Of a stretch of 33,756 nt of DNA, positions 2,979 through 16,326 are shown piece after piece. Both the position numbers and the translations under genes were made by a program. Under the pieces are notes generated by a model, which worked only from the letters and a program-made list of their open reading frames with translations, ran no database searches and was not told the origin of the DNA. Source of the stretch: a bacterium HR08 (GTDB lineage Bacteria > Acidobacteriota > Blastocatellia > HR10); assembly GCA_002898775.1 (NCBI GenBank), contig BEHK01000014.1, positions 1-33,756 on the forward strand, read 5' to 3'. The stretch's first letter is position 1, and every line of letters begins with the position of its first letter.

Positions 2979-4680
<1,702 letters not shown>

Positions 4681-10398: not shown

Positions 10399-10938
10399 TC
10401 AGTGCCGTCCGAAAGTGAAGACGATGCCGACCGAGAGTCGCGCGTTATTCTGCGTCTCGCCGCCGAAGCGCGTGAAGAGATAGTCGGCCTGCAGCAGTCG
10501 AAGCGTGAAGCGCTCCTTCAGCGGCACGTCCACACCGCCGCCGAAGACCATCCCAAAGGCGGAGAGCGCCCCGCCATCCCCCAATCGCGCTCCGCCGAAC
10601 AAAAAATGAGTGAAGGCCGTGACCGTATCGCGCAAGGCGAATCGAGGCCCCACCGTGTACGAATAGAGGGAGAGGTCCGACCGATAATGACCGCTCACGT
10701 CGGCAGCGATCCCAAACCAAGAATTCACGTTCCCCGCCATCGAGACAGTCCAGCCATGGGAGCTGATGGCTTCCGCCAACCGAGCGTACGAATAGCCAGC
10801 GAAGACTTCAACACGAGGGACCTCCTGAGCCTCCACCCGCCCCACGCCGCAAAGGATGAGGCCGAGAGCGATGCCCCCCAACCTTCTCCGCATGTCTCTC
10901 CCCCTTACCCTGTCTCCTCTATCGAAGGAGTTGCTCAC
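10399..10938 (-). CDS. Outer-membrane beta-barrel domain protein
   Basis: 179-aa ORF with signal-like N-terminus (LGGIALGLILCGVGRVEAQE), barrel-like repeats (VFAGYSYARLAEA, DVSGHYRSDLSLYSYTVGPRFAL) and C-terminal LSVGIVFTFGRH. Confidence 0.75.
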   Translation of the reverse strand: MSNSFDRGDRVRGRDMRRRLGGIALGLILCGVGRVEAQEVPRVEVFAGYSYARLAEAISSHGWTVSMAGNVNSWFGIAADVSGHYRSDLSLYSYTVGPRFALRDTVTAFTHFLFGGARLGDGGALSAFGMVFGGGVDVPLKERFTLRLLQADYLFTRFGGETQNNARLSVGIVFTFGRH

Positions 10939-11695: not shown

Positions 11696-11735
11696 AAAAA
11701 GAAAACCCCACCTCCCTCCGTAAGAGGCGGTGGGG
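11696..11735 (-). terminator. Intrinsic terminator of the microprotein operon
   Basis: Reverse strand CCCCACCGCCTC-TTACG-GAGGGAGGTGGGG followed by TTTTCTTTTT. Confidence 0.8.
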
Positions 11736-11767
11736 ATTCAGATACAGATAAACTCCCCAGCTCCCTA

Positions 11768-11878
11768 CTAAGGCGAAGGCGCAGGCATGCCAAGCAGGAG
11801 GAACACAAAGAGGAACAGCACCAAAAAGATCACAAGCACCAACAATGTCGTCTGATCCATCTGTCCTCTCTCGCGCAT
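11768..11878 (-). CDS. 36-aa single-TM microprotein (distal gene)
   Basis: Reverse strand ATG...TAG translates to MRERGQMDQTTLLVLVIFLVLFLFVFLLLGMPAPSP; SD-like GGAGGG upstream; paralogous to 11967..12077. Below the size cutoff of the ORF track. Confidence 0.75.
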   Translation of the reverse strand: MRERGQMDQTTLLVLVIFLVLFLFVFLLLGMPAPSP

Positions 11879-11966
11879 CGCCTAGCCCTCCATGCTCATA
11901 ATCAATGAAGCCGACGCATCCCCTGCGTCTCACCAGAGCCACAGGGGATCTCTGCTCAGAAGGCGC

Positions 11967-12077
11967 TTAGGCTCCGCCGCCGCCTCCTCCAAGGAGCAGG
12001 AACAGGAACAGGAACAAGACCACAAACGCCATCACGAGCACGAGCGTGAGCGTATCGAGTTGTCCTCTTTCGCGCAT
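11967..12077 (-). CDS. 36-aa single-TM microprotein (proximal gene)
   Basis: Reverse strand ATG...TAA translates to MRERGQLDTLTLVLVMAFVVLFLFLFLLLGGGGGGA; preceded by AAAGGAGAGGTGAT-ATG, a near-ideal SD. Confidence 0.8.
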   Translation of the reverse strand: MRERGQLDTLTLVLVMAFVVLFLFLFLLLGGGGGGA

Positions 12078-12119
12078 ATCACCTCTCCTTTGTAAGATCA
12101 AGATTCAACATCGGCCCGA

Positions 12120-12148
12120 AGTATACAGAGAGTCCCTGGCATTGTCAA
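12120..12148 (-). promoter_or_regulatory. Consensus sigma-70 promoter of the microprotein operon
   Basis: Reverse strand TTGACA-ATGCCAGGGACTCTCTG(17)-TATACT; predicted TSS about 35 nt upstream of the 12077 ATG. Confidence 0.8.
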
Positions 12149-15600: not shown

Positions 15601-16326
15601 ATGATGAGGAGGCCGCTGATCGCCATTTCGATGCGGAGCCACCCGAGGCGGGCGCATTTTTACCTGGAGCGCTCATATGCGGAGGCGGTGCGCGCAGCCG
15701 GCGGTGTTCCGATCCTCGTCCCCCCGCTGCCGGATCGCGCCTCCCTCTTCGATTTGGTGGCGCGATGTGACGGGGTGCTCCTCAGCGGAGGTCACAACGA
15801 CGTGGACCCCCGCCGATATGGGCGCCCCCCGCATGCGCGCTTGAGGTCGGTGCTGCCGGAGTGCGACGAGACCGATTGGCAGCTTCTGGAGGCCGCGGAG
15901 GTCTATCGCCGACCCGTACTCGCCATCTGTTACGGAATGCAAGTGCTCAACGTCTTTCGGGGCGGTACGCTCTATCAGGATATCGCCTCGGAGCGAGATG
16001 GGGCCGTGCGGCATGAACCGGGTGCGCCCGGGGAGCATCCCACCCATCGCATCCGCATCGCGGAAGGGACGCTCCTGGCCCATCTGGCCGGAGGGACGGC
16101 GGCCGACGTCAACAGCTTCCACCATCAGGCGGTGAGAGACGTGGGACGCGATCTGCAGCCGATCGCATGGAGCGAGGATGGGATCGTCGAGGCCGTGCTC
16201 GATACGCGACCGGAGCGGTTCATCCTCGGCGTCCAATGGCACCCGGAGCTGACGTTCGCTTCGGATGCCTTCTCACGGGCGATCTTCGAATGTTTCCGGC
16301 ATGCGGCGGCCAGACGAGCCCCATGA
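15601..16326 (+). CDS. Class-I glutamine amidotransferase-like (gamma-glutamyl-GABA hydrolase/peptidase C26 family)
   Basis: MMRRPLIAISMRSHPRRAHFYLERSYAEAVRAAGGVPILVPPLPD...LLSGGHNDVDPRRYG...RPVLAICYGMQVLNVFRGGTLYQDI (nucleophile Cys)...GVQWHPE. Start placed after the promoter. Confidence 0.9.
   Translation: MMRRPLIAISMRSHPRRAHFYLERSYAEAVRAAGGVPILVPPLPDRASLFDLVARCDGVLLSGGHNDVDPRRYGRPPHARLRSVLPECDETDWQLLEAAEVYRRPVLAICYGMQVLNVFRGGTLYQDIASERDGAVRHEPGAPGEHPTHRIRIAEGTLLAHLAGGTAADVNSFHHQAVRDVGRDLQPIAWSEDGIVEAVLDTRPERFILGVQWHPELTFASDAFSRAIFECFRHAAARRAP

What the first reader, a model, noticed from the sequence alone, without database searches (positions are those of the whole stretch)
11696..12148. 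Stand-alone operon of two tandem paralogous 36-aa transmembrane microproteins
Seen directly: on the minus strand, between rsmD and rlmN, two 36-codon ORFs share an N-terminal MRERGQ(M/L)D and a single hydrophobic helix but differ in their tails: MRERGQMDQTTLLVLVIFLVLFLFVFLLLGMPAPSP and MRERGQLDTLTLVLVMAFVVLFLFLFLLLGGGGGGA. They sit between a consensus promoter (TTGACA-17-TATACT, 12120-12148) and a strong intrinsic terminator (11696-11735). The first gene has an SD (AAAGGAGAGGTGATATG) close to the anti-SD complement. The size-filtered ORF track misses both. Inference: a highly transcribed duplicated membrane-microprotein unit; it could be a small regulatory subunit, a stress peptide or a toxin-like peptide. 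I recognise no family.
Basis: partly seen in the sequence, partly recalled or inferred. Interest (0 to 1): 0.88.

Follow-up and report, generated by a model that had tools for sequence, protein, structure and literature searches.

The report
Tandem GQxD membrane microproteins in HR10
In a lineage of hot-spring Acidobacteria, two real 36-residue single-helix membrane proteins sit in tandem behind a conserved strong promoter; they are a stand-alone offshoot of a new, order-restricted family of tiny membrane proteins whose more widespread copies precede a stress-type sigma factor gene, so they are probably small membrane regulators, but their function is untested.

Summary
On the minus strand between rsmD and rlmN lie two 36-codon ORFs, A (12077-11967) and B (11878-11768), with an 11/12 sigma70 promoter and a terminator. 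Four same-genus genomes (HR10; GAL08-type hot-spring Acidobacteriota) keep the promoter hexamers and gene A at the same place; three keep B, and the fourth has a second A-like copy instead. A evolves as protein (dN/dS 0.08-0.34): the N-terminal motif is fixed, the tails drift. Its more widespread locus has 1-5 tandem copies ending in G-x-C, directly upstream of an ECF sigma factor in 9/10 genomes (no anti-sigma gene beside it) and divergent from a TPR-HTH regulator in 5/10. The window pair is a genus-specific offshoot: no cysteine, longer helix, no sigma gene. Most likely mechanism (inferred): a constitutively made, N-in single-span adaptor/regulator that docks a partner through RERGQ[LIM]D. 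Toxin and pheromone readings are less likely but not excluded. New family, function unproven.

The parts
12120..12148 (-). sigma70 promoter TTGACA-17-TATACT preceded by a T-rich stretch (GATTTTTTCC)
   Evidence: 11/12 match, only site in 1.1 kb; -35 and -10 hexamers identical in 5/5 species
12079..12111 (-). Leader: conserved ATGTTGAATCTTGATC near the predicted transcript start (about 12113). Here it reads as a 10-codon upstream ORF, MLNLDLTKER, stopping 1 nt before the ATG of A; in G003 and G004 the same ATG is in frame with A. Function unclear
   Evidence: sequence; alignments; frames
12082..12091 (-). Shine-Dalgarno of gene A (AAAGGAGAGG)
   Evidence: -15.0 kcal/mol duplex with the anti-SD; SD present in 5/5 species
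11967..12077 (-). Gene A, 36-aa single-span microprotein MRERGQLDTLTLVLVMAFVVLFLFLFLLLGGGGGGA
   Evidence: orthologues in G001-G004; dN/dS 0.08-0.34 in frame 0; helix 9-31 predicted, mean pLDDT 82.9
11918..11949 (-). A-B intergenic hairpin AUCCCCUGUG...CGCAGGGGAU; stem conserved in 5/5 species, followed by a T-run in G001, G003 and (shorter) G004 but not here
   Evidence: -22.9 kcal/mol, z -3.1; G001 version -22.1, z -4.1
11768..11878 (-). Gene B, 36-aa single-span microprotein MRERGQMDQTTLLVLVIFLVLFLFVFLLLGMPAPSP
   Evidence: positional counterparts in G001, G002, G003; G000/G002 dN/dS 0.15, G001/G003 0.58
11696..11735 (-). Intrinsic terminator after gene B
   Evidence: -22.6 kcal/mol, z -3.3; counterpart in G002

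Best explanation
A and B are genuine bitopic membrane microproteins (N-in, C-out), made constitutively from their own sigma70 unit. They are a genus-specific, sigma-less offshoot of an order-wide family of tandem GQ[LIM]D microproteins. Most likely mechanism: the helix parks the peptide in the inner membrane, and the short invariant cytosolic motif (M)RERGQ[LIM]D docks a partner, either a larger membrane complex or a regulatory protein, whose localisation or activity it tunes; the drifting external tail is dispensable. Tandem copies give dosage and slightly different versions. Shown: genes, conservation, promoter, family, synteny. Inferred: topology, membrane location, partner docking. Not known: the partner.
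For: Same-genus conservation and synteny, 5/5 for promoter and A, 4/5 for B. dN/dS of A 0.08-0.34 in frame 0; length changes confined to the tail and in multiples of three. RERGQ[LIM]D is kept in all A and B copies except G004's second A-like copy, while tails vary (GGGGGGA, GGGTTP, GGGGAGS, V, MPAPSP, SRPPA), so constraint lies in the N-terminal motif and helix. Predicted helix 9-31, long enough to span a membrane. The order-wide family shares exactly this motif: hhalign E 2.9e-8 over RERGQxDxxTL, mostly outside the hydrophobic stretch; found in 10/10 genomes of the order and 0/152 of the rest of the class. At the more widespread locus the microproteins precede an ECF sigma gene with no anti-sigma gene beside it, which fits a regulatory or adaptor role.
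Against: No partner gene sits next to the window pair: rsmD and rlmN are housekeeping rRNA methyltransferase genes. There are no expression, localisation or phenotype data. Copy number turns over (G004 lacks B and has an extra A-like copy without RERGQ), so a strict one-to-one subunit is unlikely. Single helices of this kind could also be toxins or secreted-peptide precursors. The N-terminus is only weakly basic, so N-in topology is not certain.
Confidence: 0.5

Rival explanations
1. Toxic hydrophobic peptides of a type I toxin-antitoxin kind (Ldr/Ibs/ZorO-like): multicopy, tandem, lineage-restricted, single helix; made only when an antisense RNA is lost, and damaging the membrane.
For: Size, hydrophobicity, tandem copies, intergenic position and narrow taxonomic range fit. 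Type I toxins are small hydrophobic proteins repressed by RNA antitoxins (PMC8309996, PMC3919570; abstracts).
Against: No sigma70-like antisense promoter in any of five species; short leader, strong SD and near-consensus promoter, i.e. built for constant expression. The conserved element is a polar motif, not only hydrophobicity. No PADLOC or PHROG match.
Confidence: 0.12
2. Precursors of exported or signalling peptides: the helix is an export signal and the C-terminal tail is the product, sensed by the TPR-HTH regulators of this order (an RRNPP-like logic).
For: At the more widespread locus the copies share the front part but differ in short tails (CPISF, CPIRF, CPIALGR, CPIPGVTQ, CPTP), and a TPR protein with a C-terminal Fis-type HTH is divergently encoded next to it in five genomes of four genera. 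Some TPR-HTH paralogues also have a small hydrophobic ORF close by.
Against: The window tails lack Cys and are the least conserved part, the opposite of a conserved pheromone. In the window genus the TPR-HTH orthologue lies elsewhere. Adjacency in related genomes may be inherited synteny.
Confidence: 0.14
3. Membrane-tethered stand-ins for an anti-sigma factor: GQ[LIM]D peptides hold the neighbouring ECF sigma at the membrane until a signal frees it; the window pair is a trans-acting spare set.
For: The linked ECF sigma has GQxD genes as its co-directional upstream neighbours in 9/10 genomes and no anti-sigma gene beside it. Three of the ECF paralogue loci inspected (L157, L159, L161) have a zf-HC2-type anti-sigma gene directly downstream (Pfam-tested for L157 and L161).
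Against: G007 keeps a GQxD-like gene without an adjacent ECF gene. The cytosolic part is only about 8-14 residues, far shorter than known anti-sigma domains. The window pair has no sigma gene nearby. Three other ECF paralogue loci (L158, L160, L162) show no obvious zf-HC2 neighbour either.
Confidence: 0.13
4. Accessory small subunit of a respiratory, transport or photosynthesis-like complex (KdpF, CydX or PsbI type).
For: Same size and topology; weak profile similarity to photosystem II PsbI (E 0.33) and to generic single-helix models.
Against: Those matches are at chance level and cover only the hydrophobic part; neither locus is next to membrane-complex genes.
Confidence: 0.08

Closest known systems
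Prli42 of Listeria (membrane miniprotein linked to the stressosome; PMC6614362, PMC9840623)
   Same: What it may work like: a tiny single-span membrane peptide with a short cytosolic end that ties a sigma-controlling machine to the membrane (general knowledge; of the papers only the search listing and abstracts were seen)
   Different: No sequence relationship tested; no stressosome genes seen near either locus; tandem copies; an ECF sigma at the other locus rather than sigma B
Type I toxin peptides (Ldr, Ibs, ZorO; PMC8309996, PMC3919570)
   Same: Short, very hydrophobic, single helix, often duplicated in intergenic regions, narrow taxonomic range
   Different: Conserved polar RERGQ[LIM]D motif; no antisense promoter found; leader and SD open for translation
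RRNPPA receptor-propeptide pairs (PMC9765709)
   Same: At the other locus of the family: small hydrophobic peptides beside a divergent TPR-HTH regulator
   Different: HTH is C-terminal and Fis-like; the window pair is not next to such a gene and its tails drift; RRNPPA systems are described from Firmicutes
KdpF/CydX/PsbI-type small subunits
   Same: 30-40 residues, one helix
   Different: No neighbouring complex genes; no significant profile match

Membership tests
Order-wide GQ[LIM]D microprotein family (defined here) | GQ[LIM]D-type motif directly before one hydrophobic helix, 29-37 aa, usually tandem | tested here: met
   hhalign A6 vs A5 E 2.9e-8, 95% probability; A1 profile reaches the other loci weakly
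Order-wide GQ[LIM]D microprotein family (defined here) | C-terminal G-x-C after the helix | tested here: not met
   Present in all array-type copies, absent from all rlmN-rsmD copies: a subfamily difference
Order-wide GQ[LIM]D microprotein family (defined here) | Directly upstream of an ECF sigma gene | tested here: not met
   True at the other locus in 9/10 genomes; the window copies lie upstream of rsmD behind a terminator
Type I toxin-antitoxin | Antisense RNA over or beside the toxin gene | tested here: inconclusive
   No sigma70-like antisense promoter in 5/5 species; consensus scans cannot exclude other promoters
Type I toxin-antitoxin | Growth arrest on overexpression | not testable with these tools
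   needs an experiment
RRNPPA-like signalling | Adjacent TPR-HTH receptor gene | tested here: not met
   Not next to the window pair; orthologue at G000:C70. Met at the other locus in G005-G009
RRNPPA-like signalling | Conserved C-terminal mature peptide | tested here: not met
   Tails vary in sequence and length between species
Anti-sigma factors | Recognisable anti-sigma domain | tested here: not met
   No Pfam or NCBIfam match at or above the curated cut-off
Known small membrane subunits (KdpF, CydX, PsbI) | Family profile match above cut-off and complex genes next door | tested here: not met
   neighbours rsmD and rlmN
Bacterial lipoproteins | Lipobox with Cys | tested here: not met
   No Cys in A or B

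The most novel reading that the evidence does not exclude
Tandem single-span GQ[LIM]D microproteins replace the usual anti-sigma protein: several near-identical membrane-anchored peptides jointly control one ECF sigma factor, and in genus HR10 a second, sigma-free set has been split off under its own constitutive promoter as a trans-acting reservoir.
Probability: 0.13. Interest if true: 0.8.

Novelty: new variant of a known kind. Interest (0 to 1): 0.52.

Why it matters
It adds an unannotated, order-restricted family of membrane microproteins in uncultured hot-spring Acidobacteria, with clear coding evidence at the window locus. The more widespread locus ties the family to an ECF sigma factor that has no adjacent anti-sigma gene and to a TPR-HTH regulator, so a function becomes testable: does a set of 32-37-residue membrane peptides regulate a sigma factor? 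It also shows how ORF size filters hide conserved operons.

Tried and rejected
Rfam search of the loci: nothing credible. Curated protein libraries and PDB sequences: only chance-level matches. Mobile-element origin: no match in phages, plasmids or IMG/VR. Wider phylum: two marginal hits (E about 0.005 each in 396 genomes) inside 287- and 421-codon frames, about as many as chance predicts. Homology of the two promoter leaders: pooled shuffles looked strong, but that null treats related sequences as independent; per-pair tests gave only 0.005-0.34, so it is not claimed. Reading the array-type copies as lipoproteins was set aside because residues before the Cys include Q and T, which a lipobox does not normally allow (general knowledge). 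Literature searches for a described equivalent found none.

Full report
Observation. Promoter-proximal A is 12077-11967 and B is 11878-11768, minus strand. Neighbours are rsmD (PF03602, E 3.7e-52) and rlmN (Radical_SAM and RlmN_N). A's SD pairs at -15.0 kcal/mol with the assumed standard 16S tail, B's at -9.8. Two further elements were seen: a hairpin between A and B (11949-11918; -22.9 kcal/mol, z -3.1), and a conserved ATG at 12111, about two bases inside the predicted transcript start.

Are they genes? Four same-genus genomes carry the unit at the same place between rlmN and rsmD. The -35 and -10 hexamers are identical in all five. Gene A is in 5/5 and B in 4/5; G004 has a shortened A (30 aa, GTG start) plus a second A-like copy, MDTMTLILVMAFVFLFLLLFLLLGGGGGS, before the hairpin, and no B. 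For A, dN/dS is 0.08-0.34 in frame 0; one shifted frame also looks low (0.21-0.57 in most pairs), the other does not, so the frame contrast alone is not decisive, but the open frame, start, SD and in-frame tail changes agree. The G000/G002 pair of B gives 0.15, but G001/G003 B gives 0.58, so B is under weaker or less certain constraint, and several B comparisons are saturated.

Operon or not. In the window species only one promoter and the end terminator are found, consistent with one A-B transcript. In G001 and G003 the A-B hairpin is followed by a long T-run, and in G004 by a shorter one (G001 version -22.1 kcal/mol), so A probably ends there and B depends on read-through. The terminator scan does not list that hairpin; its loop is longer than the scan allows.

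Organism. The literature places the GTDB group HR10 with GAL08, a hot-spring order of Blastocatellia (PMC8787282).

Family. A profile of the window genes gave weak but patterned hits: one orthologous place in each of four genus genomes and four tandem places in G006. Reading them revealed array-type microproteins such as MRREKGQLDLATLLLALLAALQLLGSGSCPIPGVTQ and MNKIKQQLGQIDPITLLLALLLALGTGACPISF. A joint profile finds the family in 10/10 genomes of the order (best E per genome 9e-19 to 1e-3) and in none of the 152 other genomes of the class; an array-type profile over 396 genomes of the phylum adds only two chance-level hits. MRERGQ[LMI]D over 84,980 species returned only three relatives, all of this genus (records of the window's own genome may be left out by the tool). 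Profile-profile comparison links both subfamilies, E 2.9e-8, over RERGQxDxxTL. With so few and similar sequences this E-value is a guide only.

The other locus. It has 1-5 tandem copies: two in each g1 genome, three in G005, five in G006, one each in G007-G009. In the nine genomes other than G007 it is preceded by a sigma70-like promoter (10/12 in G000; sequences) and followed, co-directionally, by an ECF sigma gene (Sigma70_r2 and r4_2). The next gene is convergent, so no anti-sigma gene is beside it. Three ECF paralogue loci (L157, L159, L161) do have a zf-HC2-type gene directly downstream; three others (L158, L160, L162) do not obviously. On the other side lies a divergent TPR protein with a C-terminal Fis-like HTH in G005-G009 (47-67% identity), or groES-groEL in the window genus, whose TPR-HTH orthologue is elsewhere (G000:C70). 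Neither neighbour is universal: G007 lacks the adjacent ECF, the window genus lacks the adjacent TPR-HTH.

Origin of the window pair. rsmD in G005-G009 has no such ORF upstream, so the rlmN-rsmD copy is most simply a gain in the genus, with loss of the Cys tail and a longer helix; the direction is inferred from distribution. The promoter leaders resemble each other, but a fair per-pair test is weak.

Mechanism. The fixed parts are the polar start (M)RERGQ[LIM]D and a helix (9-31 predicted, mean pLDDT 82.9 with only seven rows); the tail is free. By the positive-inside rule (general knowledge) the start is probably cytosolic, though it is only weakly basic. This favours a membrane-anchored docking peptide over a secreted signal (whose tail would be conserved) or a pure membrane-damaging toxin (which would not need the polar motif). 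The partner is unknown. The ECF sigma at the other locus is the best lead, held at 0.13 because the cytosolic part is very short and the window pair has no sigma gene.

Verdict. Real genes, a new order-restricted family, a plausible regulatory role, no demonstrated function. Interest 0.52.

Noticed in passing
L118:4864-5241 (G000:C70), also L125:4709-5074: Directly after the TPR-HTH orthologue in the window genus lies a 121-125-aa protein with a signal-peptide-like start and repeats GVTAGG[KR]P[YF]; possible secreted repeat peptide.
   Followed up: no
L108:3192-3359, L109:1053-1220, L111:1201-1293, L114:1217-1309: Other TPR-HTH paralogues have a small hydrophobic ORF just downstream (55-aa MKKL..., or 30-aa MELWLLILFAFYRFFIQFVN...), hinting that this regulator family goes with small peptides.
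   Followed up: partly
L147, L149, L150: In G006, G007 and G008 rsmD is followed by groEL (with groES between in G007); in the window genus groES-groEL instead sits next to the GQLD array, so this neighbourhood has been rearranged.
   Followed up: no
window 12079-12111: Possible leaderless 10-codon upstream ORF (MLNLDLTKER) ending 1 nt before gene A; the same conserved ATG is in frame with A in G003 and G004.
   Followed up: partly
window 10399-10938, 3001-4578 and 15673-16242, minus strand: Predicted proteins of 179, 525 and 189 aa without any Pfam match.
   Followed up: no
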